In this document: piece after piece, positions 8,725-24,499 of the stretch
How positions within the stretch are numbered: position 1 is the stretch's first letter
Layout: every line of letters starts with the position of its first letter
NCBI GenBank assembly: GCA_002163135.1
Contig: MAAN01000011.1
Location: forward strand, 248,001 to 312,000
Direction: 5' to 3'
DNA: 64,000 nt
DNA from: Alphaproteobacteria bacterium 46_93_T64
GTDB taxonomy: Bacteria; Pseudomonadota; Alphaproteobacteria; Sneathiellales; Sneathiellaceae
Position numbers and translations under genes: made by a program
Notes under the pieces: model-generated
What the model saw: only the letters and a program-made list of their open reading frames with translations
What the model was told of the DNA's origin: nothing
The model's database searches: none

Positions 8725-9393
8725 ATGAGATCATTTGAAAAAATACATGCCATAGCCTTGGAGCGTAAAAGCAACTTACGTGACCTTTTGAGTACAATGG
8801 ATGCTCCAAAGTCAAGGGAAGAGCTTATTTCTATTTCGGATGATCGTTGGCTGTCTGGCATGACGCGTTGTGTATTTAACGCAGGTTTCAATTGGTATGT
8901 TATTAATAAAATGTGGCCTGATTTTGAAGGTGTTTTTGGAGGGTTCGAGGTTGGGCGTTGCTCAATGCTCAGTGATGAAGACATTGGAGAGCTAGTGTCT
9001 GATAAGCGGATAGTTCGTTCCGGACGAAAAATTCGAGCAGTTCGGGAAAATGCAATATTCCTTAGAGAGTTACGTACTCAGTATGGATCCGTAGGAATGT
9101 TTTTCGCAGAATGGCCAAAAGAGGACTATGTCGGCCTACTTAAGCAGTTAAAGAAACGGGGCTCGCGTCTTGGAGGCAATACGGGACGATTTTTTCTTCG
9201 GAGGATGGGCATGGATAGCTTCATTCTTTCACGCGATGTGACCAAACGCCTCATAGCAGAAGGTGTTATTGAAAAGATGCCTACATCTCAAAAAGACCTT
9301 ACGACGGTTCAAGACGCTTTTAACCTATGGAAAAAACAGTCTGGGCTTACAATTACGGAAGTTAGTCGGATCTTGGACTTTAGTGTTGGATGA
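8725..9393 (+). CDS. DNA-3-methyladenine glycosylase I (Tag)-like protein
   Basis: About 222 residues from the ATG at 8725. A GTG at 8710 is in frame, but it abuts the GGAGAGG ribosome site, so ATG is preferred. The segment 'FNAGFNWYVINKMWPDFEGVF' (read in two halves) followed by 'DEDIGELVSDKRIVRSGRKIRAVRENA' parallels Tag, where this region forms the alkyl-base pocket and the helix-hairpin-helix. The N-terminal Tag zinc-binding cysteine is not evident. It is convergent with the PT methyltransferase gene. It could excise methylated bases or be a diverged HhH-GPD protein tied to the adjacent DNA-modification island. Confidence 0.6.
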   Translation: MRSFEKIHAIALERKSNLRDLLSTMDAPKSREELISISDDRWLSGMTRCVFNAGFNWYVINKMWPDFEGVFGGFEVGRCSMLSDEDIGELVSDKRIVRSGRKIRAVRENAIFLRELRTQYGSVGMFFAEWPKEDYVGLLKQLKKRGSRLGGNTGRFFLRRMGMDSFILSRDVTKRLIAEGVIEKMPTSQKDLTTVQDAFNLWKKQSGLTITEVSRILDFSVG

Positions 9394-9475: not shown

Positions 9476-11449
9476 TCAGTCTGAATTTATCATTTCAAGA
9501 GAAAAATCGCCAATTTGTAACTGATTTTCCTTTAGATGTGAGTCAAAGTACTTTGCGTCAGGTCCATATAATGAAAAATCAAATTCTTTTATTTTGGAAA
9601 CTTGCTGGTCAAACTTGCTTTGCTTAATATAGTCCTCGTGAATTTCGGGAAGGAATAGTGATTTCATGAAAAGATATTGCTTGTCTGATTCACCATAGTT
9701 GAACAGCCGTACAGATTGTGAGCGCATATCAATTTTTATACGTTGGTTGAGAACCGGTAGGGGGTCTGAAAAATTTTCATAGAAATGAAGCGTCAATTTT
9801 CCTGAATTTACGTGAACTTTTAAGACATCTGCATTTTCGACATCACCATAGAGGATAGAGCCACATGCGACATAACAGCGTAAAGCTAGAGGCAGTCTTT
9901 TTAGAATTGATCGATGAAACTGAAGTTGATTTTCTTCGAGTATATAGCCGAGGCCTTCATCTGCAGCTTTTTCTGCAGATTCTTGAATGAGTGATTTATT
10001 GCCAATTGAGAATAAAAGTTGGCGCGCTTCTATCTGAGCATTGCCATAATTTCCCCAAAAGCTTTTTAGATCTTGCTGTAACCGTTTTGGCAATTTTCGG
10101 TATGGTTTTTGTTGCGTAAATAGCTCTAGTGCAAAGTATAAACTCAGATCATCCTGTCTCTCTGCAGAAATTTTCTCGAGCGTTTCTTTGTCACAAAGGT
10201 TTTCAAGGCAATATGCTTCAGCAGCTTTAAACGGTATCCTCTCTGCTTTTAAGCCATCCATTGTTTCAGGAGCAACTTCGTCAGGGTGCAGCCCTCTGCC
10301 GAGTCTAATAATTTCTTCTGCCAGGTGTTCGATAATTGGGCGAGCCTTAAGGATTTTGTCTCTGGTGTCTGGCACCAAATTTTTCTCCCTTTTCCCTTTG
10401 AACTCTACAACTCGATGAGTTTCACGAGCATACCTACTGATTAGGAATTCTTGCTTTACGATTTCATCAGCGAACGCAAAAAATATCCCAGGCGCAACTG
10501 CGACGGGAGCAGAATTTGTCTCACTTATAATAAAGTTGCGGAGTTGATCCTGAGAAAAGTATTTTTGAAAAGTTTCTCTGGTCGTAAGAAAACCGTCCTT
10601 GTAGGGTTTAGCGTTTTCAATCGCGGCGGCTTGCGGTGGCATGACAGAGACGGCGAGAACTTTTTTCGTCAATCCCCAAGCTCTTTTTAGTGCATCTCTA
10701 CGTTCTGTGCCGTTTTCAATAACATTGAGAACAAAGCCAATATTTACGATGTCACTTTTTGTGGTTTTATTTTTCGGCGCGTAATGCGGGTCCCATCCTG
10801 CAGCTCTGAAACCTTCACTTTCTAATGTGTCCACATCATCTCCGCGGCCACAACCATAATCAAAAAATGAATTTTCCTTTGTTAATAGTTTATGCCGCAT
10901 CAATAGTTGAACCGGTTGAGACAATTTGTATCGAATTAGGGCTGTTTTGTGGCGATTTATGACTGTCCCAATAATTTTTGCCTGTTTTGTTACTTTGTGG
11001 CCCTCAATCAGTATGCCATGAAGACTTAAGCGATTTTTCCACTGTTGCCGAAAACCAATCTTGTGCGCATCATAAAAGACATCGAATTCATCAAGCGATT
11101 TTGTTAGTGCCGCAAACTTTGCGCGTTGTGGATAATCGTCTCCAACGAGCAGTTCTTTGCGGTGCAATATTGGCGGGTTGGTGTAAGTTTTAAAGTCTCT
11201 ACGGCTAACACTGCCATCTAGGAGGTCGATGCGAATACTGTGCATCAATGTTGGAAAGGCCTCTTCGTCAAAGCCTGGATAGTTTAACAGTGCAACATTA
11301 TCATTAGATAATCTAATGATATTCCAAGCCACTCTCTGCAAATTAGCAGATTTTATAGCTGTTGATATTAAAGACTTTTGATCAGCATCTAGAAATTTGA
11401 TAGCCGAACGGTGCACATATAAGTCACCTGAGACTTTTTTTCCAACCAT
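9476..11449 (-). CDS. DNA phosphorothioation-associated putative methyltransferase
   Basis: A 657-residue protein. The SAM-binding motif DYGCGRGDD is at 197-205, followed by 'GWDPHY', the acidic-loop strand of class I methyltransferases. The overall build (about 130-residue N-terminal region, 'NRHKTALIRYKLSQPVQ' before the SAM motif, long C-terminal region) is what I recall for the PT-associated putative methyltransferase family (TIGR04096). Its position beside sspA supports this. The substrate is unknown; protection or tailoring of PT DNA is a guess. A GAGAAGG ribosome site precedes the ATG at 11449. A 272-nt spacer separates it from sspA upstream. Confidence 0.75.
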   Translation of the reverse strand: MVGKKVSGDLYVHRSAIKFLDADQKSLISTAIKSANLQRVAWNIIRLSNDNVALLNYPGFDEEAFPTLMHSIRIDLLDGSVSRRDFKTYTNPPILHRKELLVGDDYPQRAKFAALTKSLDEFDVFYDAHKIGFRQQWKNRLSLHGILIEGHKVTKQAKIIGTVINRHKTALIRYKLSQPVQLLMRHKLLTKENSFFDYGCGRGDDVDTLESEGFRAAGWDPHYAPKNKTTKSDIVNIGFVLNVIENGTERRDALKRAWGLTKKVLAVSVMPPQAAAIENAKPYKDGFLTTRETFQKYFSQDQLRNFIISETNSAPVAVAPGIFFAFADEIVKQEFLISRYARETHRVVEFKGKREKNLVPDTRDKILKARPIIEHLAEEIIRLGRGLHPDEVAPETMDGLKAERIPFKAAEAYCLENLCDKETLEKISAERQDDLSLYFALELFTQQKPYRKLPKRLQQDLKSFWGNYGNAQIEARQLLFSIGNKSLIQESAEKAADEGLGYILEENQLQFHRSILKRLPLALRCYVACGSILYGDVENADVLKVHVNSGKLTLHFYENFSDPLPVLNQRIKIDMRSQSVRLFNYGESDKQYLFMKSLFLPEIHEDYIKQSKFDQQVSKIKEFDFSLYGPDAKYFDSHLKENQLQIGDFSLEMINSD

Positions 11450-11721
11450 TTACCTTCTCAACATTTTCTAAAGTGAATGTCATTGTGATAATTCTCGAAG
11501 TGACATAACAAAGAAATAGAGAGTACTTCGAGAAATTTCTGTTCTTTTTCCTTACTGTGAATTGTATCAGGCGTGCCACGAAAATCAAATATAGGTGACT
11601 ATTCTTTGTTGTAACAGTCGTCAATGTGATCTTGAATCGAAGGCGCTAGTTACTCTACACAAAGCAAAAGAAGAAAATAAACTCAGCCGACTATTTTGAT
11701 GGTGAAAATGGGGACCATTAT

Positions 11722-12909
11722 TTATGCGGTCATGAGAGTGGAACTGTCTCTCATTTTATCCAATGTTTCGAGAATAATAGTAACTGCATCAGTAATGTCT
11801 TCTTTAGTAGTGTCGTGCCCTAAACTAAATCGAATTGACGCATTAGCTTCGTCATAAGTAAGTCCTGTAGACCTCAGCACATATGAAGGTTCAATAACTC
11901 CTGAGGAGCAGGCTGAGCCCATTGAGGCGGCAAGGACGGGTTGCATCATTGCTAAAAGTTGCCGTGCATCTAGTCCTTTGAAACATATGTTTGCATTTCC
12001 TGGATGGCGAAGCTCTGTCGACGGCCCATTTACACTAATGAAGTTCAATTTATCTTTAAGCCGAATGACAAACTTATCTCTGCATTCTTTTAGTGCATTG
12101 CGCCGGTCGACTTCTTCCGGAAGTGAAAGGATTTTCGCTGCAGCTCCCATCCCAATAATTAATGGTGTCGGTAATGTTCCTGATCTTAGGCCGTCTTGCT
12201 GTCCGCCTCCAAAAATGAGAGGCTCTATCTGATTTTTCAGGTCACGTCTGATGTAGAGTGCCCCAATTCCTTTTGGGCCGTAGAATTTATGAGCAGAGAG
12301 GCTAAGCATATCCACGAAATTTGCATAATCACTCAGTGAGAGTGCTATTGGTGCCTGTGCAGCGTCGCAATGAAGGATAGTTCCGTATTCCTGTGTGATT
12401 TTCGATATTTCTTCAATCGGTTGTATGGATCCGATTTCACAATTTACTACGCCTATAGAAAGCAATAAGACATCATCGGAGATTGTTTCACGAAGATAGT
12501 CTAAATCGACTATTCCACGGTTGTCGACTGGAGCTAATTCGATGCAATAATTAAGATTGTCTTTCAAGTACCGTGCCGCTTCGAGCACGCATTTATGTTC
12601 GATTGAACATACAATTATTCTATTGCGTTTCCCATTAAGTTTGTGCCTTGCTAGCCCAAGAAGTGCGAGATTATTTGCTTCTGTCGCACCCGACGTAAAT
12701 ATGATTTCGTCTATATCAGAGCCGATCATCGCAGCGACATTCGCCCCGGCTTCATCGATGGCAGCAGCAGATTTCCAACCGAATGCATGATCGGAAGAAT
12801 GAGGATTTGCAAAACTCTCGCGATATGAGGGTAGCATTGCACTGAGAACCCTTGAATCGACAGGCGTCGAGGCTTGATGGTCGAGGTAAATAGTCTCCGA
12901 AATCCGCAT
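11722..12909 (-). CDS. sspA: Cysteine desulfurase SspA/DndA
   Basis: This is a 395-residue class V aminotransferase-fold cysteine desulfurase. The pyridoxal phosphate lysine is K208 in SLSAHKFYGPKG, and the sulfur-carrying cysteine is C334 in GSACSSG. 'HQASTPVD' at the N-terminus and the FTSGATEANN cofactor loop at 71-80 are also intact. It would take sulfur from cysteine and pass it as a persulfide to the PP-loop protein SspD for DNA phosphorothioation. It is divergent from sspB with only 42 nt between the start codons, so one compact bidirectional promoter must drive both. A housekeeping IscS role is unlikely because no Fe-S assembly genes are present. Confidence 0.85.
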   Translation of the reverse strand: MRISETIYLDHQASTPVDSRVLSAMLPSYRESFANPHSSDHAFGWKSAAAIDEAGANVAAMIGSDIDEIIFTSGATEANNLALLGLARHKLNGKRNRIIVCSIEHKCVLEAARYLKDNLNYCIELAPVDNRGIVDLDYLRETISDDVLLLSIGVVNCEIGSIQPIEEISKITQEYGTILHCDAAQAPIALSLSDYANFVDMLSLSAHKFYGPKGIGALYIRRDLKNQIEPLIFGGGQQDGLRSGTLPTPLIIGMGAAAKILSLPEEVDRRNALKECRDKFVIRLKDKLNFISVNGPSTELRHPGNANICFKGLDARQLLAMMQPVLAASMGSACSSGVIEPSYVLRSTGLTYDEANASIRFSLGHDTTKEDITDAVTIILETLDKMRDSSTLMTA

Positions 12910-12951
12910 TTAGGTCTACTTTTTTATTAAATTCACGAACAAAAACCGTAA

Positions 12952-14010
12952 GTGTCTCGATCTGGACGTTCTCTCCAGATCGAGATTGACCTTACTCTAG
13001 TTAGTCAGCTAAAGTCGAGACCTAGAATGATTTATGAGAGGGACTACTATATGTTGCGTGGTTGTTTGGCGATTGAAGACTATAAACCGCAATTTTCAGG
13101 TCATGCAACCTTTCCGTTGCGTTATGGTTGGCTCAAGAAAGGTTTTGACGCTGTTTTATCACGGGATGGCGAAAGTGGCAGCAAACAAATTTTTCTGAAT
13201 GAAGACGCTATTGCCCGTTTCGGTGTTGGTAAAAACATGGTTGAATCTATGCGGCATTGGTGTCAGGCAACGGGGATCATTGAAGAGGGCAATAATGAAA
13301 ATAGCTTAAAGACAACAGAGTTCGGGCGACTTTTGTTCTGCAGCGATGGGTTGGATCCTTTCTTGGAGGAGGCTTCATCTTTATGGTTAATTCATTGGAA
13401 GTTGTGTTCTTCTGGGGTGAAGACGACATGGCATTGGTCATTTAACCATTTTCCAGGCTCAGTGTTTGAGCGCGACCATTTTTTATTGGGATTGTCAAAA
13501 TTGTCTTTGGAGGCGGGATGGAAGCGTGTATCGCCGAACACGATAAAGAGAGATATCGAGTGTTTCGTGCGCACATATGTAGCGCGACCGATTAAAAGCA
13601 AGGAAGCGCATGAAGACGCATTAGAATGTCCGTTGGTTGAATTAGGATTGATCAAAAGCGCAGGCTCGCGCGATCGATTTCGCTTCGTACGCGGGAGAAA
13701 ATCTTCACTCCGAAATAGTATATTCTTATTCGCCGTCATAGAGTTTTGGAAAGATTATTCATCCGCCTCACATCTTTCGTTTGAGGCGTTGATGCATGAA
13801 CCCGGCTCCCCAGGCAGAGTATTCTTACTTGATGAGGCAGATGTGTCAGACAGACTATCAAGTTTGGATGAAGTATCCGGTGGTAAAATTCGATGGTCAG
13901 AGACCGCAGGACTTAAGCAAATTATTCGAGATGTTGAACTTGAAAAAATTGACCTCTTGGATTTGATTAAAAACGACTACGCATATTCAGCCAATAGAAA
14001 GGTAGCCTAA
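12952..14010 (+). CDS. sspB: DUF4007 protein SspB (phosphorothioation nickase component)
   Basis: A 352-residue DUF4007-family protein. The diagnostic N-terminal motif FSGHATFPLRYGWLKKG is at about 48-64. In the published SspABCD system, SspB is the DUF4007 subunit that nicks DNA so that sulfur can be placed in one strand at 5'-CCA-3' sites. The GTG at 12952 is the first start in frame; an ATG at 13030 would remove 26 residues but keep the motif. It abuts sspC exactly (stop at 14010, ATG at 14011), indicating a tight operon. Composition is AT-rich compared with the core genes to the right. Confidence 0.8.
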   Translation: MSRSGRSLQIEIDLTLVSQLKSRPRMIYERDYYMLRGCLAIEDYKPQFSGHATFPLRYGWLKKGFDAVLSRDGESGSKQIFLNEDAIARFGVGKNMVESMRHWCQATGIIEEGNNENSLKTTEFGRLLFCSDGLDPFLEEASSLWLIHWKLCSSGVKTTWHWSFNHFPGSVFERDHFLLGLSKLSLEAGWKRVSPNTIKRDIECFVRTYVARPIKSKEAHEDALECPLVELGLIKSAGSRDRFRFVRGRKSSLRNSIFLFAVIEFWKDYSSASHLSFEALMHEPGSPGRVFLLDEADVSDRLSSLDEVSGGKIRWSETAGLKQIIRDVELEKIDLLDLIKNDYAYSANRKVA

Positions 14011-17000
14011 ATGGGGTTGCAAGATAGTGTGCGGGTCGCACGTAGATTTCAACGGTCTGTTCGAATTGATACTGATCTAGAGTTAATTGATAGTTTAAAG
14101 GGATTTGTTTGCCCACAATCTTCATTGGATGTTCTTGGTTCAATGGCGCGGCATGCGGCGGAGAATGAGCAGGGAGCATTTACCTGGACGGGGCCCTATG
14201 GAAGTGGAAAGTCAAGTCTAGTTATAGCATTGAGCGCATTACTTTCAGGAAATATTAAGAGTCGCAAGATTGCGGCATCAATTGTTAGCGAGAAAGTAGC
14301 GAACCAACTTTGGTCGGCCCTTCCGCCTAAGGCAAGAGGCTGGAACATTCTTCCAGTTGTTGGTCGCCGCGATCATCCTGCTCAAGTCATTGGGGAAGCA
14401 ATCGAGGCGTCACAATTATCCAACAAAAAGTATAAAAAATGGAAAGAAACCGATGTTCTCGAAACACTGAAAATAATAGCGCATAATTCCTCAAAACACG
14501 GCGGTCTCATCGTTTTCATCGATGAAATGGGCAAGTTTTTGGAGGGCGCGGCGATTGAAAACTCTGACGTATATCTCTTTCAACAACTTGCGGAAATAGC
14601 GTCACGCAGTAAAAATAGACTTATTATTGTGGGCATTTTACATCAGTCTTTTGAAGAGTATGGGAGACAGTTGTCGCGACAAATGCGTGACGAATGGACT
14701 AAAATTCAAGGTCGGTTTGTTGATCTTTCCGTGAATGCTGCTGGAGAAGAACAGATAGAACTGTTGTCGCGGGCCATCGAAAGCTCCGAAAATCGTATGC
14801 AAAATGGTATAACGCAAGAAATCGTAAATACTATTAAAAATCAACGTCCTCACACGTCTCAGAAGTTGGCGGATACTTTGGATAATTGTTGGCCTCTACA
14901 TCCAGTAACTACTTGTTTGTTGGGGCCCATTTCTAAACGGCGCTTTGGTCAAAACCAACGAAGTATATTCGGATTTCTCAATTCGGCGGAGAATTATGGA
15001 TTCCAACATTTTTTGAGCATTGCAGAAGAAGACACACTTTTTGAACCTCACCTACTTTGGGAATATTTGCGAGTAAATCTGGAGCCAGCAATACTGGCTT
15101 CGCCAGATGGGCACCGATGGGCTCTAGCCGCGGACAGCGTCGAGAGGTGTGATGCCGCAGGAGCAACTGAGTTGCAATTGGAATTGCTTAAGTCTATTGC
15201 GATAATCGATTTATTCAGAGAGCGATCAGGACTCTTAGCGAGTCTCTCTCTTCTACAAGCATGTACACTCGGTAAATTCTCGAAAACCGAACTCGTAAGC
15301 GCTTTAGGAGAGCTCAAAGCACAGTCTTTTATTATTTACAAAAAGCATCTTGATGCCTACGCAATTTTTGCTGGCAGTGATTTTGATATAGAGCAAGCTG
15401 TGGAAAATGCTCTCTATGAAGTTAGGGGAGTCGATTTTGGTGTTCTAAAAGAATTGGCTAACTTGCAACCTATTCTTGCGAAGCGCCACTTCCATGAGAA
15501 GGGCACATTGCGTTGGTTCGATGTCGATCTTGTTCCGCTAAAAAATTTACAAGAAGAAGCGGAAAACTATGTTCCAAACAAAGGAACGATTGGCCAATTT
15601 CTCTTAGCCATTCCAACGGAAAATGAAACGAAAGAAGACGCTCAGGATATCTGCGCAAAAGTCGCGGCCCAAATGATACAACGTGATGTTATTATTGGTC
15701 TATCGGATAATTCCTGGGCTGTAAAGGATCGTGCACGGGAACTCATTGCGATCGACAAAGTACGACAAGAAAGCCCCGAACTCGCGGGAGATAATATTGC
15801 GCGCAGAGAGGTGTCTGCACGTTTAGTAAATAGCCAAAATTTCGTGGAAGCAGAACTCGCTTTTGCCTTTGATAACGCGATATGGTTTTTGAGTAGTGAT
15901 CGGCCCACGTCCTTGCGTTATTCGCAACTTAACGGGTTGGCGTCGCAATTATCAGATCAACGATTTCCGGATGCGCCAAGGTTAAATAACGAGCTTCTCA
16001 ATCGTCACAAGCCATCTTCGAGTGCCGTCGCCGCCCAAAATGCTTTGCTCAAGAATATGGTATCTCAGAGTACTCAGCAACGATTGGGAATTGAAGGCTT
16101 TTCGTCTGAGGGAGGTCTCTATGTTTCTCTTTTGCAAAGTACAAAGCTGCATGTGGCTGGAAACAGTGGTTGGAAATTTGTAAAACCGGTTCCTGCAGAC
16201 GTCGATCTGCATAATCTGTCCCCTCTCTGGGCATGTACAGAAAAATACTTGAAAGAAAATAGTGATAGAACAGTTAAGGTTTCGGAGATTTATGAAATTT
16301 GGCGGAGCCCTCCCTACGGCGTTAGGGATGGGCTTATGCCAATTATTGCGGTTGCATTTATTCTGTCTTGTCAAGATACAGTCGCCCTTTATCGTGAGGG
16401 TATTTATCAAGCGAATTTTAAAGACTTAGATGTCGAATATTTAACTATTGATCCTGCGTTTATTCAAATTAGATGGATGGATCTATCTGGAGCATCGCGC
16501 AAATTGCTTTCCGGTATGGCGGAAATTGTCAGAGATTTGGACCCGGACAATGGCCTTCAAAACTTAAAGCCGATCGATGTCGCTCGCGGTCTCATCTCAA
16601 TATTTGATGGTGTTGCTCCCTGGACAATGCGGACATCGTATTTGTCAAAAAATGCTCTGCGACTGCGCGACATATTCAAAAAAGCTAACGATCCTAACCA
16701 GTTGATTTTTAATGACCTTCCTACGTACTCAGAGGCGCAGATTGATCAGTTCTCGGAAGAAGGAATGTCGAATGTCGTAAACGCCGTTAAAGAGGGGTTG
16801 GCGGAGATTGTAGGGGCGTATTCCTCGTTGCTCGAACGTTTTTATCAGGTGCTGATTTATGATCTAGGGGTTGCGAATACATCATCACAATCGCTATTTG
16901 ATTTACGTGAACGGGCAAGAAATATTCGTGGTGTTGCGGGGGATTTCAAACTAGATGCATTCGCCGGCCGGTTGGCCAATTTTGAGGGCACTGTTGAAGA

Positions 17001-17400
17001 GATCGAAGGTCTGGCGAGCTTGACAGTTAGTAAACCACTAAATTCTTGGATTGACGCGGACGCCGATAGAGCAATGATTGAAATCGCAAAATTGTCACGA
17101 CAATTCAATAAGGCTGAAGCTTTTGCTCATATTAAAGGCCGGAAAAACAAACGTTCGAGTATTGCCATTATTACGAGTATTAACGGTAGATCTTCGCCCG
17201 TTGTTGGGGAATTTGATATAGGGGATGCTGATCAAGCTTCTGTGCAAGATGCAATTGTAAAATTGGAAACAGTTTTGTCACAAGATAATGGATTCCGAAA
17301 AGAGGTGGTGCTCGCGGCTCTTGCCGAATTGAGTACTCGTTATATTTCAAGTGTTGAAAAAGAGCAGATAAATTCAATAACCGTGAGGGCGAAAAATTGA
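14011..17400 (+). CDS. sspC: Large P-loop ATPase SspC
   Basis: A 1129-residue ATPase with Walker A GPYGSGKS at 61-68 and Walker B with acidic pair D171-E172 in IVFIDEMGKFLEG. The C-terminal two thirds are helical with no motif I recognise. The domain style recalls BrxC/PglY large ATPases. In the Ssp system this subunit couples ATP hydrolysis to SspB nicking and SspD sulfur transfer. It lies between sspB and sspD, and its stop codon overlaps the TTG start of sspD by 3 nt. Family placement rests on gene order plus the P-loop; the exact domain family needs a profile search. Confidence 0.78.
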   Translation: MGLQDSVRVARRFQRSVRIDTDLELIDSLKGFVCPQSSLDVLGSMARHAAENEQGAFTWTGPYGSGKSSLVIALSALLSGNIKSRKIAASIVSEKVANQLWSALPPKARGWNILPVVGRRDHPAQVIGEAIEASQLSNKKYKKWKETDVLETLKIIAHNSSKHGGLIVFIDEMGKFLEGAAIENSDVYLFQQLAEIASRSKNRLIIVGILHQSFEEYGRQLSRQMRDEWTKIQGRFVDLSVNAAGEEQIELLSRAIESSENRMQNGITQEIVNTIKNQRPHTSQKLADTLDNCWPLHPVTTCLLGPISKRRFGQNQRSIFGFLNSAENYGFQHFLSIAEEDTLFEPHLLWEYLRVNLEPAILASPDGHRWALAADSVERCDAAGATELQLELLKSIAIIDLFRERSGLLASLSLLQACTLGKFSKTELVSALGELKAQSFIIYKKHLDAYAIFAGSDFDIEQAVENALYEVRGVDFGVLKELANLQPILAKRHFHEKGTLRWFDVDLVPLKNLQEEAENYVPNKGTIGQFLLAIPTENETKEDAQDICAKVAAQMIQRDVIIGLSDNSWAVKDRARELIAIDKVRQESPELAGDNIARREVSARLVNSQNFVEAELAFAFDNAIWFLSSDRPTSLRYSQLNGLASQLSDQRFPDAPRLNNELLNRHKPSSSAVAAQNALLKNMVSQSTQQRLGIEGFSSEGGLYVSLLQSTKLHVAGNSGWKFVKPVPADVDLHNLSPLWACTEKYLKENSDRTVKVSEIYEIWRSPPYGVRDGLMPIIAVAFILSCQDTVALYREGIYQANFKDLDVEYLTIDPAFIQIRWMDLSGASRKLLSGMAEIVRDLDPDNGLQNLKPIDVARGLISIFDGVAPWTMRTSYLSKNALRLRDIFKKANDPNQLIFNDLPTYSEAQIDQFSEEGMSNVVNAVKEGLAEIVGAYSSLLERFYQVLIYDLGVANTSSQSLFDLRERARNIRGVAGDFKLDAFAGRLANFEGTVEEIEGLASLTVSKPLNSWIDADADRAMIEIAKLSRQFNKAEAFAHIKGRKNKRSSIAIITSINGRSSPVVGEFDIGDADQASVQDAIVKLETVLSQDNGFRKEVVLAALAELSTRYISSVEKEQINSITVRAKN

Positions 17401-18233
17401 GTAATGGCAATGTGAGGCATGTATTAGGTCTCTCCGGCGGACGAGATAGCGCAGCTCTAGCGGTATATATGCGGCAGCAATACCCTGAATTAGAAATTGA
17501 ATATTTCTTTACGGACACTGGAGAGGAGTTGCCGGAAGTATATGAATATTTAGTGAAGCTTGAGGGTTTCTTAGGTAAACCTATTTTAAGGCTAAACCCT
17601 GACCATACATTCGATTTTTGGATGAAGAAACACAATGATTTTTTGCCGTCCCCTCAAGCACGTTGGTGTACAATCAATATGAAACTAAAGCCTTTTGAGG
17701 CTTGGGTTCGCCCTATGCTTGAAACCGGCGATAAAGTTTTTAGTTATGTGGCTATCAGATCTGATGAAGAATATCGCGAAGGGTATAATTCAAAAAATGA
17801 TAATTTGATAGTCAAATTGCCGTTTAAAGAAGCGGGAATTGATAAACAAAGCGTTATTGATATCTTAGATAATGCCGGATTGGGATTACCTGATTACTAC
17901 AAATGGCGATCAAGAAGTGGGTGTACATTTTGTTTCTTTCAGCAAAAAATTGAGTGGGTACGATTAAAAGAACATCACCCGAAGGCTTTTGAAAACGCAA
18001 TGAAACTTGAAAAGCATGCGATAGATGGTGGCTCGCCGTTTACATGGTGCCAAGGAGAGTCCTTAGCGGAGCTGATAAAGCCGGAACGTGTGGTGCAAAT
18101 TGAAACAGACCATGAAAAACGCCTGGCGAGGATGAGGGCCAATATTCAAAAAAACCCTCTCCGTGAAAACGAACCCATTGATATCGATGACCTATATGGT
18201 CAATCAAAAATGTGTTTGGCCTGTCATAAATAA
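17397..18233 (+). CDS. sspD: PP-loop ATP pyrophosphatase SspD (PAPS reductase-like, DndC-related)
   Basis: A 278-residue PAPS-reductase-fold protein. The pyrophosphatase loop SGGRDS is at 13-18, followed by 'EYFFTDTGEELPEVYEY', typical of adenylating sulfur transferases. Two CxxC pairs (C176/C179 and C273/C276) could hold an Fe-S cluster as described for DndC. It would adenylate the DNA backbone phosphate and accept the SspA persulfide. A TTG start at 17397 overlaps the sspC stop and has a GAGGG ribosome site 7 nt upstream, so translation is coupled to sspC. It is the last gene of the sspBCD unit. Confidence 0.82.
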   Translation: MSNGNVRHVLGLSGGRDSAALAVYMRQQYPELEIEYFFTDTGEELPEVYEYLVKLEGFLGKPILRLNPDHTFDFWMKKHNDFLPSPQARWCTINMKLKPFEAWVRPMLETGDKVFSYVAIRSDEEYREGYNSKNDNLIVKLPFKEAGIDKQSVIDILDNAGLGLPDYYKWRSRSGCTFCFFQQKIEWVRLKEHHPKAFENAMKLEKHAIDGGSPFTWCQGESLAELIKPERVVQIETDHEKRLARMRANIQKNPLRENEPIDIDDLYGQSKMCLACHK

Positions 18234-18643
18234 TTGTTCAATTGCAGCGGTATTGCCAAAATAACTGCCTTTGCTGGTGATTAAATTGAAAAGGCCTGAG
18301 GCGTGACTATATTCGATGGTTTGGTAAAAACATCTCAGAAAAAACACCTTGGAAATTGGATGTAATCTACAGCGCGATATTACTCTCTGGAGGCCACGTG
18401 AAGGATTTATCAGAGTGGCATTTATCAAGATATTTTATTCGGAAACTTGTCTAAATGGTACTAACGAGTTTGTATGAACGCCGAGAAATAGGTTGATTGA
18501 TAGCTTTACTAACTAGTGTAAAATGAATAGAGTTCTCGTAATACAAATGAATTAAATAAAAAAAATACTAAAGTATCTTTGGTTCTCATCGGCATAATAT
18601 CTAAATATCTGGTAATAATGTGATTGAGTAATCTTTAACGAAA
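18234..18643 (+). other. Intergenic region between modification and restriction modules
   Basis: About 410 nt without a credible gene. The right half is very AT-rich and holds the promoter candidate listed separately. The break suggests the downstream restriction genes are transcribed independently of sspBCD. Confidence 0.4.
18497..18524 (+). promoter_or_regulatory. Candidate sigma-70 promoter for the PT-restriction operon
   Basis: TTGATA at 18497-18502, a 16-nt spacer, then TAAAAT at 18519-18524, in an AT-rich block about 120 nt upstream of the helicase gene start. The match to consensus is good, but no transcript data are available. Confidence 0.35.
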
Positions 18644-20818
18644 GTGCTAGGCCGATTGAAAAAGTTAACTGATGTTTCCTGGAAATCTGTATACCGATCG
18701 GGCAACGACAACATACTTAATGATTTCTATAAACCTCTATTAAGTCATTGCAAGCAGTATGATAGAGCTGTGGGCTATTTTTCTTCAGAGTTATTTCTTC
18801 ACAATTTGGCCGGGATATCTTCTATCGTACAAAATAACGGGAAAATGAGGCTAGTGATTGGTCATCCGCTTTCCGAAATGGAATTTAGAGCAATTCATCA
18901 TGGCAATGAATTATCTAGAATGTTAGAAAAACTGAGCGATCGTTTGCTCGAAATAATTGAAGAAGTAAGAGGTAAGGCAGTTGATCGTTTCGAATTACTA
19001 GCTTGGTTAATTGCTGCCAATAAGCTTGAGATTAAGTTCGCATTGCGCCGGCAGGGCATGTACCACGAAAAAATCGGAATTGCGTATGACTCTGATGATA
19101 ATATTGTAGTATTTCAAGGTTCTGCAAACGAAACTTTTTATGCGATGAACGATTCCTATAATGCAGAATCTTTAATGGTTTTCCCGAGCTGGGAAAGTGA
19201 TGTATTCAAGAAATATGGTGAACCCTGTATCACAAGCTTCTTAGAGCTTTGGGAGGGGCGACAGAAGAACACAATAACTGTCGATGTTCCTTCAAACTTT
19301 TATTCAATGATTGCAAAACGATATTCATTGGACAACCCAGTAACACCGGAGTTTGAAGAGCAAGATGTTCCGCGCGCTGAATTATTTTTTGCTGAAACGA
19401 TTGTCACATCAGAACCCGGGGTTCCTAATGAAATTGGCGGAAGACAATTTGAATTATTCGATCACCAAAATAAGGCGATTTCAAACTGGTGGTCTAATAA
19501 TGCTCATAAAGGAATATTGAAGCTAGCAACAGGTGCGGGTAAGACAATAACTTCAATTTATGCTGCGGTAAAGATATTCGAAGCAAAAAAAGAGAAAGAA
19601 CAGCCCCTTTTCCTAATAATATCCGTTCCTTATGTTGAGCTTGCTAACCAGTGGATCGAGGATCTGAAAAACTTCAATATATTTCCACATAGATGTTTTG
19701 GTTCAAAGAGGAATTGGGTAGATAACTTAAAGAAGGATATTTTTTCCTTTCGAATGGAGGCAATTTCTTTTGTTGCGACTGTGGTCGTGAATAAGACACT
19801 AGGCACCGACGATTTTTCAAGATTAATTTGTGATATTGCGCCGGAAAATTTGATGTTTATCGGCGATGAATGTCACAATCACGGATCCTCAAGAATACAA
19901 CAGTATCTCCCCAATGCCGACTTCCGAATGGGTTTGTCGGCCACGCCCTATAGGAGCGACGATGATGAAGTCGACTCTCCTTTTCCCAACGACGCTAAGC
20001 TTCGCATAGAGAGCTATTATTCGGGAATAGCTTTTGAATATAGTCTATCAGACGCGATCAATGACCGAATATTGTGTGAGTATAAATATCATATTGTTCC
20101 TGTTTTCTTGACTGCAGAAGAACAAGAAGTCTTCGAAGAATTATCGACTGCAATATCGAAGATTATTGCCAAAAAATTCTCATCAAAACTCAATAAGATT
20201 GAGCAAGAAAATCTAACAATATTATGTAGCAAACGCTCCCGATTGTTAGGGACAGCAAGTAATAAGTTAGTAGAGCTCGGAAAACTTGTAAATACAATTG
20301 AGCCAGAACACAGAAACTTAAGTCTATTTTATTGTGGTGAAGGACGTGTATTTAACGCTGACGAAGTTGGAGACGACGAAAGGGTCGTAGAAAAGGTTTC
20401 GCAGGTACTCGGCAATAATGGTTGGAAAACGTCTCGTTTTACGAGTAATGAGAGCCCCGCTGAACGCAAATCTATCATGAGTTCTTTTAAAAGCAAGGGC
20501 ATCGATGCTCTAGTTTCAATGAAGGTATTAGATGAAGGTATTGATGTTCCTAGTTGCAATACTGCATTCATTCTAGCGAGCACGAAAAACCCAAGACAAT
20601 ACATACAGCGTCGGGGTCGCGTATTAAGACGGTCGTCGGGGAAAAAGTATGCAGTAATTTATGACTTCGTTGTTTTACCAATAGATGGGATAGATTCCGT
20701 TGCGGCAACAAAACTAAAAGAGTCTGAGATGGAAAGAGTAGAAGATTTTACTGCTCTTGCGATCAACAAGTATGAAATTGAAAATATTATCAACGAACTG
20801 GGTCTGAGAGATGTCTAA
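18644..20818 (+). CDS. DNA phosphorothioation system restriction enzyme: PLD nuclease plus superfamily 2 helicase
   Basis: A 724-residue fusion. The N-terminal half has a phospholipase-D-type nuclease motif (H141, K143, then GSAN at 159-162). The C-terminal half is a superfamily 2 helicase/translocase with Walker A ATGAGKT at 295-301, DECH at 408-411, SATPYR and a QYIQRRGRVLR motif VI near 640. This layout matches the family named PT system restriction enzyme (TIGR04095). It presumably discriminates phage DNA lacking PT marks. The start is a GTG at 18644; no earlier ATG is in frame. It overlaps the next ORF by 8 nt and heads a four-gene coupled operon ending at 23531. Confidence 0.8.
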   Translation: MLGRLKKLTDVSWKSVYRSGNDNILNDFYKPLLSHCKQYDRAVGYFSSELFLHNLAGISSIVQNNGKMRLVIGHPLSEMEFRAIHHGNELSRMLEKLSDRLLEIIEEVRGKAVDRFELLAWLIAANKLEIKFALRRQGMYHEKIGIAYDSDDNIVVFQGSANETFYAMNDSYNAESLMVFPSWESDVFKKYGEPCITSFLELWEGRQKNTITVDVPSNFYSMIAKRYSLDNPVTPEFEEQDVPRAELFFAETIVTSEPGVPNEIGGRQFELFDHQNKAISNWWSNNAHKGILKLATGAGKTITSIYAAVKIFEAKKEKEQPLFLIISVPYVELANQWIEDLKNFNIFPHRCFGSKRNWVDNLKKDIFSFRMEAISFVATVVVNKTLGTDDFSRLICDIAPENLMFIGDECHNHGSSRIQQYLPNADFRMGLSATPYRSDDDEVDSPFPNDAKLRIESYYSGIAFEYSLSDAINDRILCEYKYHIVPVFLTAEEQEVFEELSTAISKIIAKKFSSKLNKIEQENLTILCSKRSRLLGTASNKLVELGKLVNTIEPEHRNLSLFYCGEGRVFNADEVGDDERVVEKVSQVLGNNGWKTSRFTSNESPAERKSIMSSFKSKGIDALVSMKVLDEGIDVPSCNTAFILASTKNPRQYIQRRGRVLRRSSGKKYAVIYDFVVLPIDGIDSVAATKLKESEMERVEDFTALAINKYEIENIINELGLRDV

Positions 20819-20996
20819 TCAATTAAGAAGCCTTATCGCAGCGAAACAAGAGATTGAGCAGGAAGGTCCGTCTGGAATTATGAAAGCGGCGAGAGACATT
20901 ATTAGAATTGAGCGAAATTATTTTTATAGCGATCGAACGAGTAATAAAAAATTGAAAGAGATTAGGGACGTAATTCAAAATATTCGTATTGATTGA
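20811..20996 (+). CDS. Small basic protein between helicase and DndD-like genes
   Basis: A 61-residue charged, apparently all-helical protein with no signal peptide and no recognised family. Its ATG lies inside the end of the helicase gene (8-nt overlap), and its stop falls just before the SMC-like gene, so it is embedded in a coupled operon. Tight coupling and lack of internal stops support a real gene. DndE is a small subunit of similar position in Dnd systems, but I see no DndE motif, so no function is assigned. Confidence 0.6.
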   Translation: MSNQLRSLIAAKQEIEQEGPSGIMKAARDIIRIERNYFYSDRTSNKKLKEIRDVIQNIRID

Positions 20997-21019
20997 TATT
21001 CTTTAGGGCAACAATAATA

Positions 21020-23056
21020 ATGAAAATACTATCTGTAGAGCTTAAGAATTTTAGACAATTTTATGGGCGCCAAATCGTCCATTTTTCAACTGACGAAGAA
21101 AAAAACATAACTCTTATACACGCAGAAAATGGAGTGGGAAAGACCGCCTTTCTAAACGCGATCTTGTGGTGTTTTTATGCGAAAACTACAGACAATTTTT
21201 CAAATGCACAAAATTTGTTAAATGATTCAGCCGCAAATGAAGGACAAACTAGTTTGTTTGTTCAAATTGAATTTGAGGAAGATGGTCATATTTTTTCTGC
21301 AATAAGGACACTAAACGCAAAGACTAGGGACACCAAATTCGAAGTCTATAGGGTCGTAGATAACAATTACGAAATGGTAAAACCGGACCCGAATTTGTTT
21401 ATTAACAACATTATCCCAAAGGATATGGCCAATTACTTTTTTTTTCAAGGTGAAGGCGTCGGGTCTTTAGCTCAAGATGCTGGAGGTGGCCAGATTAAAA
21501 GAGCAGTTCGTGACATACTAGGGTTTAAAGTTGCTGAAGAGGCTAAAAACGATTTAGCCAAAATAAAAACCTCTTATCGGACAGAATTAAGGAAAGTTGA
21601 CAAAGCCGATGAAATTTCGTCAAAGGAAGACGAATTGTCAGACCATGAAAAAATTCTTAAGAACCAACAAAATGATTTGGAAGATAGAAATAAAGAACAA
21701 AATCTATATTCTGAACAAATCGCAGTTGCGAACAAATTTCTTGCAAACTCAAATCATGTAGTTGTTAAGCGCAAACATGCTGAGAGAAATGACATGGAGA
21801 TGCAACTCAAGGTTAGAAGAAAAGAATTAGCGGATGCGCATTCCAAAAAAATTAGGCTTATACGTGATTACTCATATGTTGCGTTTGCGAGTGAACTATC
21901 TCTTCAAGGGCTAGATTTTATTGATGAGGAAGAATTGAAGGGAAAATTGCCGGCGCCTTTGAATGTTCAGGTTGTAAAGGATATAGTAGAGCGAGAGGAG
22001 TGTCTTTGCGGTGCTCCCATTCACCCTGGAACTCAAGCATTTGAAAATATTCAAAAACTAACGAAAGATGCTGCAGATCCTGCGTTACTAAATAGAATAC
22101 ACAGTGCTCGCAGCCAGTTGACATTGGTCCAAGATAAATTAGGAAACGCTAAAGGCGATTTGACTGAAAATTACGGAGTCTGCGAACAAAAAGAAAAAGA
22201 AATTGCAGATCTTGAGCATAGAAAAGAAGCTATTTCAATAGAAATTGATGATGTTAATCTGGAAGATATTAGTCGCTTCAATAAGAATTTGCGTCTTGCA
22301 GAAAATAAAAAAATGGAAACCGTACGGGCGATGGCTCGGCTTGAAAGAGACATTGAAGAGACCGAAGGTAAAATTCAGTCCATTAGGGCGAGTTTGAGCC
22401 GAGTTTCGCATCTTGACCGCGACGTTAAAAATTTTAAGAGATTGATTGATACAACAGATCAAATACTTGAGACAATAAATGAAACACTTTCTTCTACTGA
22501 AGCACTGGTTCGAAGAGAATTGTACAAAAAAATAAACAGTTTTTTGGAGAAATTTGTGCGGCAAGATTACACTGCTGAAATAGATCCAGAAACTTACGCT
22601 ATTCAGTTGATCAATCGTGATGATAAGCCTGTTGGTGCGAGCGATGGTCAACGGCTAATTTTGAGTCTCACATTCATTTCCTCTTTGTTGGAAATAGCCC
22701 GTGAACGTAAAAAATTATCCAGTAATATTTTGACAGCTGGAGCGATTGCTCCATTTGTTATCGATGCCCCATTTGGTGTCTTGGACAATATGTATAAAGC
22801 AAACATAGCGGAAGTTATTCCTCAATCAGTGGGGCAAGTTATCTTCCTGCTATCATCTAGTCATTGGGAAGGATCTGTTGAGGAAAAGCTCAGAAAAAAG
22901 GTAGGGAAAGAATACAATTTGTTGCTCGAAGTAGCATCCCCTCAAAATGGCAGAGAGGCAAACATCATTAGAATAGAAGGAACAGACTATCAGACGGCTG
23001 TATATGATGCAGAGAAGGATAGAACAATTATACAGGAGGTCGGCAATTATGTCTGA
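21020..23056 (+). CDS. DndD-like SMC/Rad50-family ATPase
   Basis: About 678 residues from the ATG at 21020. An upstream in-frame start at 20993 would add nine residues, but the SMC fold begins at MKILSVELKNF. Walker A AENGVGKT is at 35-42. Two coiled-coil arms flank a central 'CLCGAPIHPG' that may be a zinc hook. A degenerate signature 'GASDGQRLILSL' and Walker B 'PFVIDAPFGVLDN' are near the C-terminus. This matches the DndD family of PT proteins. In its position between a PT restriction helicase and PT-associated protein 4, it more likely serves restriction or sensing than sulfur insertion. It overlaps the next gene by 8 nt. Confidence 0.8.
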   Translation: MKILSVELKNFRQFYGRQIVHFSTDEEKNITLIHAENGVGKTAFLNAILWCFYAKTTDNFSNAQNLLNDSAANEGQTSLFVQIEFEEDGHIFSAIRTLNAKTRDTKFEVYRVVDNNYEMVKPDPNLFINNIIPKDMANYFFFQGEGVGSLAQDAGGGQIKRAVRDILGFKVAEEAKNDLAKIKTSYRTELRKVDKADEISSKEDELSDHEKILKNQQNDLEDRNKEQNLYSEQIAVANKFLANSNHVVVKRKHAERNDMEMQLKVRRKELADAHSKKIRLIRDYSYVAFASELSLQGLDFIDEEELKGKLPAPLNVQVVKDIVEREECLCGAPIHPGTQAFENIQKLTKDAADPALLNRIHSARSQLTLVQDKLGNAKGDLTENYGVCEQKEKEIADLEHRKEAISIEIDDVNLEDISRFNKNLRLAENKKMETVRAMARLERDIEETEGKIQSIRASLSRVSHLDRDVKNFKRLIDTTDQILETINETLSSTEALVRRELYKKINSFLEKFVRQDYTAEIDPETYAIQLINRDDKPVGASDGQRLILSLTFISSLLEIARERKKLSSNILTAGAIAPFVIDAPFGVLDNMYKANIAEVIPQSVGQVIFLLSSSHWEGSVEEKLRKKVGKEYNLLLEVASPQNGREANIIRIEGTDYQTAVYDAEKDRTIIQEVGNYV

Positions 23057-23531
23057 AGCGTCGAATGAAATAAATTGGCGGACAATTAATATCCGGCGCG
23101 ATCGAAAGTATAATTCTTTAGTGGAACGCTTAAGTACCGCTGATTCCAAAGGGATATTTCGTTTTCATAAAGATTTGATGCTTTTTGCAGCCATGATTGG
23201 ATACTCTGAGAAAAGGAGTTCTCCCGTTTCTGGTGATAATGTCGGAATAACTTTGAATACATATTCTTCCGATAACAAAGACGCATTCATATACTTACTC
23301 GCGTTGATGCAAAATAAAAATGCAATCTGCTTGAAAGATGAAAATTTGCTTGAAAGCGTAAAAGTGTTTGAAGGATATTGCAATTCAGGATTGGGGACAA
23401 TTCAACATTGGCTAGATGACAATCCAGCAGACCCTTCGGGAACAGATACTTTGCTTGAGAAGATTTATGAACGGCTTTGCCTCAATGGCAAAACAGATGT
23501 AAATAATGATAGTTTAGAACCAAATTTTTGA
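23049..23531 (+). CDS. DNA phosphorothioation-associated protein 4
   Basis: 160 residues from the ATG at 23049, which has a strong AGGAGGT site at 23034-23040. An upstream in-frame start at 23004 lies inside the previous gene and lacks such a site. The segment 'FRFHKDLMLFAAMIGYSEKR' corresponds to the conserved core of PT-associated protein 4 (TIGR04062), a family found only beside PT restriction genes. The function is unknown; it may be a small regulatory partner of the DndD-like ATPase. The stop overlaps the start of a tiny downstream ORF (TGATG). Confidence 0.7.
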   Translation: MSEASNEINWRTINIRRDRKYNSLVERLSTADSKGIFRFHKDLMLFAAMIGYSEKRSSPVSGDNVGITLNTYSSDNKDAFIYLLALMQNKNAICLKDENLLESVKVFEGYCNSGLGTIQHWLDDNPADPSGTDTLLEKIYERLCLNGKTDVNNDSLEPNF

Positions 23532-23641: not shown

Positions 23642-23845
23642 TTTTCAATTTCTAACGATATTTTTTATACGGAAATGGTTTTTCAGCAAATCGATCTTTT
23701 AGGATCGTCTCTCGGAGATAATTAGACGGATTACCCATGATAGACTTAATCCGGTTTCATCGGGTGATTAGTAAAAGGGGTGTGCCAAATTCTGTTGGAC
23801 TCCTTGTTTTTGACAGAACATAGGTTGGATAGTGAATTAAATACA

Positions 23846-24499
23846 ATGCAGCATGAGTGGCAGGATATTTCATCAGTCCCCGAAAAGCCCGGGGTGTATG
23901 CGTGGTACTATCGTCCTGAAATTACTAATTCGGATTTAGATAGAATCATAACAAAGGTTGCTTCCTTGACTGACAAAAAGGATCGATCAAGAGCTGTTGC
24001 GGTAGTGACGGAGTTTCTTGATAGCTTTCTTTTCAACTCTTTTCGAGAAAGTTCATATAGGGTTGCTGTTAAAGGTGCTCTGAAACCTCAATATGAAGGC
24101 AGTTTAAAGCACGTTTCCCAAATTTCCACGTCTTTGGCGGAAAGGCTTGCCGCCGCCCCAGAGCGATTTAGGAAAATAAAAGAGGTGGTTGAGGCTTCTG
24201 CGCCGGAGTTTACAAGCCCACTTTATATAGGGATGTCAAGTAATCTCCGGCGGCGGCTAAGTAATCATAGGAGATTAATCGAAAAGTATCGATTGAGGAA
24301 TGACATGACTTCCAGTCTGGACCTGAAGGAGGAAAATGCCTCCCGAGATAAAAATTTTGCGATGCAGGTTGTTCGAAGAAAAATGGCGCCAACAAGGTTA
24401 TTTGTTGTTACGCATGTTATCGAATGTGATGAGCAAGAATATAAAGATGTTGAAAATATCCTAAATAGAATAAATTATCCGTTGCTTGGGAGAAATTAG
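23846..24499 (+). CDS. GIY-YIG family nuclease
   Basis: 217 residues from the ATG at 23846. A GTG at 23780 would add 22 residues but has no properly spaced ribosome site. The GIY half is PGVYAWYY near the start. A helical insertion of about 95 residues follows, then the YIG half LYIGMSSNLRRRLSNH with the catalytic Arg. The C-terminal 'ENILNRINYPLLGRN' carries the Glu and Asn expected of a GIY-YIG active site. It would nick or cut DNA. Its stop TAG directly abuts the ATG of the DGQHR gene, giving strict coupling, so the two probably work as a pair within the PT island. Confidence 0.75.
   Translation: MQHEWQDISSVPEKPGVYAWYYRPEITNSDLDRIITKVASLTDKKDRSRAVAVVTEFLDSFLFNSFRESSYRVAVKGALKPQYEGSLKHVSQISTSLAERLAAAPERFRKIKEVVEASAPEFTSPLYIGMSSNLRRRLSNHRRLIEKYRLRNDMTSSLDLKEENASRDKNFAMQVVRRKMAPTRLFVVTHVIECDEQEYKDVENILNRINYPLLGRN

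What the first reader, a model, noticed from the sequence alone, without database searches (positions are those of the whole stretch)
9476..23531. Ssp-type modification joined to a Dnd-type restriction set
sspA, sspB, sspC and sspD can be read from motifs (PLP Lys and Cys, DUF4007 motif, P-loop, SGGRDS). They are followed not by SspE but by a PLD-helicase, a 61-residue protein, a DndD-like SMC ATPase and PT-associated protein 4. It may correspond to the published SspFGH type or be a further variant; I cannot tell without profiles. The PT methyltransferase beside sspA adds a second possible DNA mark.
Basis: partly seen in the sequence, partly recalled or inferred. Interest (0 to 1): 0.65.

Follow-up and report, generated by a model that had tools for sequence, protein, structure and literature searches.

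The report
Ssp sulfur mark paired with PbeABCD
A bacterial island joins one family of enzymes that put sulfur into the DNA backbone (SspABCD) to a defence set known from another such family (PbeABCD), and the same pairing turns up more than once in other bacteria, which would link two sets of 'orphan' genes.

Summary
Window 9476-23531 encodes a phosphorothioation-associated methyltransferase, SspA, SspB, SspC, SspD, then a PLD(HKD)-SF2 helicase, a 61-aa protein, a CxC-type ABC ATPase and a DndE-like protein. The last four are PbeABCD (A and C by profile; D by a near-cut-off profile and fold; B by position), not SspFGH or SspE.

The pairing recurs. Of 80 PbeA loci (best of 522 confirmed in a capped scan of 84,980 species genomes), 17 lie beside classical SspBCD, 20 beside Dnd, 24 beside a long-SspD Ssp variant; 19 were undecided, 17 of them short on one side. 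Of 41 loci with at least 8 kb on both sides, 39 have a sulfur-modification module. Ssp-linked Pbe falls in three PbeA clades, and modules have been exchanged: Pbe 79% identical beside SspC 22% identical, and the reverse.

No paper found in the library names SspABCD-PbeABCD. The SspFGH paper left 2,211 of 2,678 sspBCD without a partner; the Pbe paper left over half of PbeAC without dndCD. New variant of a known kind; no function was tested.

The parts
9476..11449 (-). DNA phosphorothioation-associated putative methyltransferase (TIGR04096); substrate unknown
   Evidence: TIGR04096 E 8.9e-162, 539 bits vs cut-off 150; present in 10 of 11 loci of the same Ssp-Pbe set, window included
11722..12909 (-). 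sspA, cysteine desulfurase
   Evidence: PADLOC SspA 6.3e-128, DndA 1.3e-125 close behind; SAHK lysine and SACSSG cysteine read directly in the translation
12952..14010 (+). sspB (DUF4007), GTG start; divergent from sspA across a 42-bp gap
   Evidence: PADLOC SspB 3.5e-104; PF13182 1.9e-89; matches solved SspB 6juf at 1.7e-36
14011..17400 (+). sspC, AAA+ ATPase with P-loop GPYGSGKS
   Evidence: PADLOC SspC 1294 bits
17397..18233 (+). sspD, PP-loop sulfurtransferase (SGGRDS), TTG start
   Evidence: PADLOC SspD 7.3e-134
18644..20818 (+). pbeA: PLD/HKD nuclease domain fused to an SF2 helicase
   Evidence: PADLOC PbeA 8.2e-244; ResIII and Helicase_C, and PLDc_2 below cut-off; HxK, GSxN, GxGKT, DExH and QRRGR invariant in 4 of 4 aligned
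20811..20996 (+). pbeB: 61-aa protein overlapping pbeA
   Evidence: Size and place directly upstream of pbeC as in Sphingomonadaceae, Rhizobium and Pontibrevibacter loci; sequence weakly conserved; no relevant profile
21020..23056 (+). pbeC: ABC ATPase with CxC zinc hook (ECLCG)
   Evidence: PADLOC PbeC 1.7e-226; CxC in 19 of 19 PbeC examined from Ssp-linked loci
23049..23531 (+). pbeD: DndE-like protein (phosphorothioation-associated protein 4); start codon not certain
   Evidence: TIGR04062 8.4e-20, just under cut-off; AlphaFold2 pLDDT 86.6; the three best solved entries are DndE, Z 8.4, 7.6 and 7.6
23780..24499 (+). small GIY-YIG nuclease-like protein (candidate second effector, part 1)
   Evidence: Y149 I150 G151, R159, E225 invariant in 5 of 5 aligned; weak GIY-YIG Pfam and UvrC matches
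24500..26800 (+). large DndB/DGQHR-family protein (candidate second effector, part 2)
   Evidence: PF14072 1.6e-8, over cut-off; DGQHR motif invariant in 9 of 9 aligned; recurs beside PT genes

Best explanation
This is a phosphorothioate (PT) based anti-phage defence island in which SspABCD marks the host DNA and PbeABCD is the effector that acts on unmarked DNA. Inferred steps: SspA takes sulfur from cysteine; SspD activates and transfers it; SspB and SspC select and nick the site, leaving a single-strand PT mark, probably in 5'-CCA as in the studied Ssp systems. PbeC (CxC ABC ATPase) with PbeD (DndE-like DNA-binding subunit) scans DNA. Where marks are missing, PbeA (helicase with a PLD-type nuclease domain) is let loose, and phage replication stops. 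PbeB is probably a small regulator. PbeABCD is a portable effector that has switched between Dnd and Ssp partners more than once. A second arm, the GIY-YIG plus DGQHR pair, probably works beside it. Shown here: gene content, motifs, one moderate fold match, recurrence and exchange of modules. Not shown: any PT, any defence, any dependence of one half on the other.
For: Profiles identify both halves. PbeD resembles DndE. Recurrence: 17 of 80 PbeA loci beside classical SspBCD, and 39 of 41 loci with 8 kb or more on both sides carry a PT-modification module (label thresholds set by hand); two annotated plasmids show sspABCD next to pbeABCD. In 13 of 21 Ssp-linked loci, window included, the gap between the modules is under 500 nt, measured between stop-to-stop frames. 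Ssp-linked PbeA falls in three sets with Dnd-linked rows between; the three partner types need 5 changes on the tree. The SspBCD tree rejects one clade for the alpha-type Pbe partners (p-AU 7.5e-52) and for the gamma-type (0.0028); L020/L037 share PbeA 78.8% and PbeC 78.5% but SspC 22.1%. Own genome: no DndC and no match to the one SspE model tried. In the Dnd-linked archaeal case Pbe acts in a PT-dependent manner (PMC6459918, passages).
Against: No experiment. PADLOC has no match for the two small proteins. The DndE match of PbeD is moderate: Foldseek E about 1, and the aligner's own note warns that middling Z can mean only a common arrangement, more so for helical models. The gap between sspD and pbeA is about 400 nt, so the two may be separate transcription units. 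Some paired loci are divergent or several kb apart (up to 3992 nt). Pbe also occurs with no PT gene in about 9 kb on either side, by annotation and by my HMMs (Natrinema plasmid). In a sample of 385 genomes of the class only 2 of 8 SspB genomes had PbeC (one PbeC model, E 1e-30), one of them this genome. The 80 loci are the best-scoring relatives of the query from a capped scan, not a random sample. The PbeA tree is a quick one; the split of the alpha and gamma sets leans on an unresolved fork and on L014, a long branch.
Confidence: 0.62

Rival explanations
1. Neighbours without partnership: SspABCD is a solitary modification (or serves the GIY-YIG/DGQHR pair), and PbeABCD is an independent system that merely shares a defence island.
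For: Low-GC stretch with a tyrosine integrase at its right edge shows an island where unrelated defences can gather; about 400 nt between the modules; Pbe without a PT gene nearby exists.
Against: 39 of 41 well-flanked Pbe loci have a PT-modification module; repeated pairings, often with tight spacing.
Confidence: 0.2
2. Two effectors on one mark: SspABCD serves both PbeABCD and a GIY-YIG/DGQHR effector that works like SspE or DndI (a DGQxR NTPase that senses PT, with the nuclease as a separate protein).
For: Pair follows pbeD here and in Thalassotalea L020; pair beside sspABCD, with no Pbe found in the locus, in two Asticcacaulis plasmids, beside ssp genes in two cyanobacteria and beside DndBCDE in Nonomuraea; catalytic residues conserved; SspFGH and SspE can share one SspABCD (PMC8092258); DndI has DGQQR plus a nuclease (PMC11662687, passages).
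Against: DGQHR/DndB proteins can be regulators; beyond a Pfam DndB match and the motif nothing supports the large protein, and no solved structure matches; the GIY model was poor, pLDDT 52; L102 has the large gene without a GIY match; the large gene was found only in this genome among 385 and 398 sampled genomes.
Confidence: 0.4
3. The Pbe genes are part of the modification machinery: PbeC-PbeD (DndD-DndE relatives) direct SspABCD to further sites rather than restrict DNA.
For: PbeC and PbeD are relatives of DndD and DndE, which act in modification (PMC10853773, passages).
Against: Ssp has its own target module (SspB, SspC); PbeA carries a nuclease-helicase with conserved motifs; the 2019 abstract assigns the marking to DndCDEA and the virus block to PbeABCD (PMC6459918).
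Confidence: 0.08

Closest known systems
DndCDEA-PbeABCD (Haloterrigena jeotgali; Xiong 2019, PMC6459918, passages)
   Same: Effector set: PLD-helicase, small protein (66 aa there, 61 here), AAA/ABC ATPase, about 150-aa protein, same order
   Different: Modification module is SspABCD (single-strand type) instead of DndCDEA; no DndC in this genome
SspABCD-SspFGH (Wang 2021, PMC8092258)
   Same: Same modification module SspABCD
   Different: Effector unrelated: SspF/G/H models match a Tenderia control locus but not these proteins in the rows listed
SspABCD-SspE
   Same: Same modification module; a DGQxR-motif protein is nearby
   Different: No SspE match; DGQHR and nuclease are on two proteins and the nuclease is GIY-YIG, not HNH
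CxC ABC ATPase-DndE systems (Rakesh 2024, PMC10853773)
   Same: HKD-SF2 helicase, small protein, CxC ATPase and DndE cognate
   Different: In the passages shown to me that paper links them to Dnd genes or methylases; Ssp appears only as sspABCDE
Type 4 BREX (BrxP-BrxC-PglZ-BrxL)
   Same: SspB, SspC and SspD are homologues of its DUF4007, BrxC and PAPS reductase (PMC12839542, passages)
   Different: SspB and SspD are separate proteins here; no PglZ or BrxL among the 27 window proteins scanned with Pfam

Membership tests
SspABCD modification | SspA, SspB (DUF4007), SspC (AAA+), SspD (PP-loop) side by side | tested here: met
SspABCD modification | Single-strand PT in 5'-CCA | not testable with these tools
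   Needs LC-MS/MS or PT mapping
PbeABCD | PbeA: PLD-like domain plus type III res-like helicase | tested here: met
   the Pfam PLD match itself is weak (E 0.0047, below cut-off)
PbeABCD | PbeB: small protein directly upstream of pbeC | tested here: met
   By size and position only; no relevant profile, PADLOC included
PbeABCD | PbeC with CxC zinc hook | tested here: met
   ECLCG; profile 1.7e-226
PbeABCD | PbeD: about 150-aa protein after pbeC, homologous to known ones | tested here: met
   35% identical to the Rhizobium protein annotated 'DNA phosphorothioation-associated protein 4'; TIGR04062 slightly below cut-off; no PADLOC match
PbeABCD | PbeD is a DndE cognate (fold) | tested here: met
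   Top three entries are DndE, Z 8.4, 7.6, 7.6, next 5.9; moderate only, Foldseek E about 1, and the tool warns about middling Z
PbeABCD | PT-dependent block of virus replication | not testable with these tools
   Needs infection assays
PbeABCD as published | Coupled to DndCDEA | tested here: not met
   SspABCD instead; no DndC in own genome
SspFGH | SspF, SspG, SspH homologues | tested here: not met
   No match in the rows listed for nine proteins (best 25 rows only for PbeA and PbeC); positive control in L011. Not sought in the rest of the genome
SspE | DUF262 with DGQxR plus HNH/DUF1524 in one protein | tested here: not met
   No SspE match in the window proteins scanned or in the own genome; only one SspE model was tried genome-wide
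DndFGH | DndF, DndG, DndH homologues | tested here: inconclusive
   None among the listed rows for the window proteins; not sought in the rest of the genome
SspE/DndI-like effector (GIY-DGQHR pair) | DGQxR NTPase motif with an associated nuclease | tested here: met
   DGQHR invariant in 9 of 9, GIY-YIG residues in 5 of 5; activity not tested
SspE/DndI-like effector (GIY-DGQHR pair) | Both in one protein, nuclease of HNH type | tested here: not met
   Two proteins, GIY-YIG type

The most novel reading that the evidence does not exclude
SspABCD-PbeABCD is a distinct, repeatedly formed class of PT defence in which a DNA-scanning pair of the Dnd lineage (CxC ATPase plus DndE-like subunit) reads single-strand Ssp marks, so PbeABCD is a universal PT effector that can be moved between single- and double-strand marks; in this island it shares the mark with a second, undescribed effector made of a GIY-YIG nuclease and a DGQHR NTPase.
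Probability: 0.4. Interest if true: 0.72.

Novelty: new variant of a known kind. Interest (0 to 1): 0.55.

Why it matters
Two papers each left an open end: 2,211 of 2,678 sspBCD modules had neither SspE nor SspFGH, and the authors asked whether other effectors exist (PMC8092258); only 42.1% of 553 PbeAC had dndCD nearby (PMC6459918). This pairing would close part of both. It also offers a direct test of what PbeABCD reads: the same effector family occurs beside a double-strand marker (Dnd) and a single-strand marker (Ssp), and there are natural pairs in which one half has been swapped while the other has changed much less.

Tried and rejected
SspFGH: rejected by profile, with a positive control. 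SspE and DndC in the own genome: no match. Methyltransferase as DNA base modifier: no amino-MTase or m5C motif, so left open. GIY-YIG fold by AlphaFold2: pLDDT 52, Foldseek matches meaningless; the claim rests on residues and weak profile matches only. Solved-structure profile searches for the DGQHR protein and PbeD: no match. Empty site in four same-genus genomes: the left-flank DNA found nothing, which shows nothing. Attachment repeats for the integrase: only short imperfect repeats. Promoter and terminator scan: 59 promoter-like sites against 40.6 expected and 13 terminator-like against 14.9, not used. Viral contigs: no PbeA or PbeC relative, one DGQHR relative without other PT genes in the part held. 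Phage records: 5 PbeC matches, two of them over 80% of the query at 22-25% identity, not followed. A regex for HxK in PbeA missed 5 of 21 Ssp-linked rows; on inspection all five hold HxK followed by GSxN with other spacing or a cut start. The 'none' loci were not counted as Ssp or Dnd. The 'SspLong?' loci L048 and L079 were counted with SspLong in the 24. A Dnd label was also given where DndD and DndE but no DndC were in reach. Paper PMC7544218 is not held, so the 2020 ABC-ATPase survey was not checked for this pairing; subscription papers and preprints, including Xiong 2020, were not seen. Supplementary tables were not read.
Full report
Observation. PADLOC, NCBIfam and Pfam profiles name eight of them: TIGR04096 methyltransferase (-), SspA (-), then on the + strand SspB, SspC, SspD, PbeA, PbeC and the phosphorothioation-associated protein 4, TIGR04062, just under its cut-off; the 61-aa protein between pbeA and pbeC has no relevant match, and PADLOC has none for either small protein. 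The PbeC profile begins at an inner ATG, 21020; for pbeD the inner ATG 23049 is my choice. sspB-sspC abut, sspC-sspD overlap by 4 nt, pbeA-pbeB and pbeC-pbeD overlap by 8 nt; the sspD-pbeA gap is about 400 nt. Two further genes follow: a GIY-YIG-like gene (23780-24499) and, abutting it, a 766-aa DndB/DGQHR-family gene (24500-26800).

What it is. The four-gene set equals PbeABCD as described for archaea: PLD-helicase, 66-aa protein, AAA protein and 152-aa protein (PMC6459918, passages), re-read as HKD-SF2 helicase, small disordered protein, CxC ABC ATPase and DndE cognate (PMC10853773, passages). Here PbeC has the CxC hook (ECLCG) and PbeA has HxK, GSxN, GAGKT, DECH and QRRGR. A 28-sequence AlphaFold2 model of PbeD (pLDDT 86.6) has DndE structures as its best solved matches (Foldseek ranks 1-3, weak E about 1; VIA-align Z 8.4, 7.6 and 7.6 against 5.9 for the next entry); the tool warns that such Z can mean only a common arrangement, so this is moderate support. 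It is not SspFGH: those proteins are a Walker A protein, SspG and an FtsK-like SspH (PMC8092258), and PADLOC models for all three match a Tenderia plasmid locus but none of the window's proteins in the rows listed. The own genome has no DndC and no match to one SspE model.

Recurrence. Two annotated plasmids carry the same pairing: Sphingomonadaceae OTU29MARTA1, sspABCD-pbeABCD in one direction, and Rhizobium indigoferae, sspABCD converging on pbeA-D-C-B. With HMMs built here and thresholds set by hand I labelled all 80: 17 classical SspBCD, 20 Dnd, 24 a long-SspD variant (L048 and L079 among these lack the SspD end in the contig), 19 none. Of the 41 with at least 8 kb on both sides of PbeA, 11 are Ssp, 16 Dnd, 12 long-SspD and 2 none; those two, L063 and L074, show DndE, and L063 also part of DndD, near the end of the locus. 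Twenty-one loci in all, window included, carry classical SspBCD; in 13 of them the gap to Pbe is below 500 nt, in the rest 855 to 3992 nt. In an even sample of 385 genomes of the window's class, PbeC (one model) occurs in 5, SspB in 8, both in 2, this genome and G379, and side by side in both. Against: a Natrinema plasmid has pbeABC(D)-like genes with no PT gene in about 9 kb on either side.

Exchange of modules. On a PbeA tree of 86 rows (quick method, SH-aLRT support only, two long branches) Ssp-linked rows form three sets: eight alpha-type (order B-C-D-A where the locus is complete), eleven gamma-type including the window (order A-B-C-D, with B not detected in three), and L007 with L015. 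Dnd-linked rows lie between, partly at an unresolved fork and on the long branch L014; the three partner types need 5 changes. On the SspBCD tree of the 21 loci the Pbe type needs 5 changes where 2 would be the least, and one clade is rejected for the alpha set (p-AU 7.5e-52) and for the gamma set (p-AU 0.0028). Examples: L020 and L037, PbeA 78.8% and PbeC 78.5% identical, SspC 22.1%; L032 and L035, PbeA 90.4%, SspC 43.2%; L015 and L033, SspD 82.5%, SspC 58.7%, PbeA 31.6%, PbeC 18.6%. The window itself pairs gamma-type Pbe (PbeA 54.5% to L020) with SspBCD closer to L035 (SspC 56.1% against 26.7% to L020). SspBCD sets 28 to 64% identical still go with the same C-PS-CA mark in the published cases (PMC8092258), so many swaps among SspBCD need not change the mark, though 22% lies below that range; a swap from Dnd to Ssp would change it.

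Second effector. The GIY-YIG/DGQHR pair follows pbeD also in Thalassotalea L020, stands directly upstream of sspABCD in two Asticcacaulis plasmids with no Pbe found in the locus, beside ssp genes in Trichormus and Geminocystis, and beside a methyltransferase and DndBCDE in Nonomuraea. L102 has the large gene beside ssp genes but no GIY match. All 7 plasmid records with a relative of the large protein lie in PT loci; six were opened, and in the seventh, a second Trichormus record, the SspD match lies next to it. Y149-I150-G151, R159 and E225 are invariant in five GIY proteins and DGQHR in nine large ones. By analogy with SspE and DndI, where a DGQxR NTPase senses PT and drives a nuclease (PMC11662687, passages), I think it works like a split SspE; it is not a member, as the nuclease type and the split differ. 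This is inference.

Literature. Searches for SspFGH, PbeABCD, both together, hyphenated pair names, DUF4007 with phosphorothioate, CxC ATPase with Ssp, and DGQHR with GIY-YIG listed no paper that by title, abstract start or the passages I opened describes SspABCD-PbeABCD; only PMC8053081 holds both 'sspBCD' and 'PbeABCD', and its passages list them as separate systems. I read parts 1-2 and passages of PMC8092258, and passages only of PMC6459918, PMC10853773, PMC11662687, PMC12707154, PMC11931770, PMC8053081 and PMC12839542. Preprints, subscription papers and supplements were not covered, so 'undescribed' is limited to this library. PADLOC already has separate models for each half.

Verdict. 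A real and recurrent pairing of two known modules, found on plasmids and in an island, with a likely third module. It is a new variant of a known kind. Its value is that it ties together sspBCD and pbeAC sets that were left without partners and gives natural swaps for testing what the Pbe effector reads.

Noticed in passing
L038, L042-L044, L051, L053, L054, L057-L059, L062, L064-L066, L068, L072, L075, L077, L083, L090, L093, L094 (and cut-off L048, L079): A third partner type, mostly Firmicutes by record title: a long (~580 aa) BrxP-like PAPS reductase (Cys-rich end read in L044), separate SspB, a ~1200-aa SspC, usually a class V aminotransferase, then pbeA, pbeC and a weak pbeD; none of the six L043 proteins scanned, from the reductase to pbeC, matched PglZ or BrxL in the rows listed.
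   Followed up: partly
L057:7664-9958, L064:7792-9966: A large gene sits between the sspC/sspA genes and pbeA; the one in L057 is DUF262-like (HEC-06/Orf5/SspE profiles), the one in L064 was only seen as an ORF. Pbe and an SspE-like effector may share one mark there.
   Followed up: partly
L009, L012, L100, L101 (and perhaps L102): Another partner beside SspABCD that I could not name: DEAD helicase (~540 aa), an ATP-binding protein (MzaB-like start in L012) and a PLD-family protein as three genes.
   Followed up: no
window 9476-11449 and 9 other loci of the same Pbe set: TIGR04096 methyltransferase accompanies the gamma-type Ssp-Pbe loci (10 of 11, window included) and 4 of 24 Dnd-labelled loci but 0 of 8 alpha-type ones.
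   Followed up: partly
window ~9000-36000: Low-GC stretch (0.37-0.45 from 9 to 34 kb, mostly 0.44-0.51 outside) ending at a tyrosine integrase, 34440-35729 (-), beside transporter genes: looks like a genomic island.
   Followed up: partly
window 7524-8459 and 8710-9393: ADP-ribosylglycohydrolase (DraG-like) and a Tag-like methyladenine glycosylase homologue beside the PT genes.
   Followed up: no
L099:20880-23022, L104:20896-23042: Protein kinase plus DUF262 protein downstream of sspABCD on Asticcacaulis plasmids.
   Followed up: no
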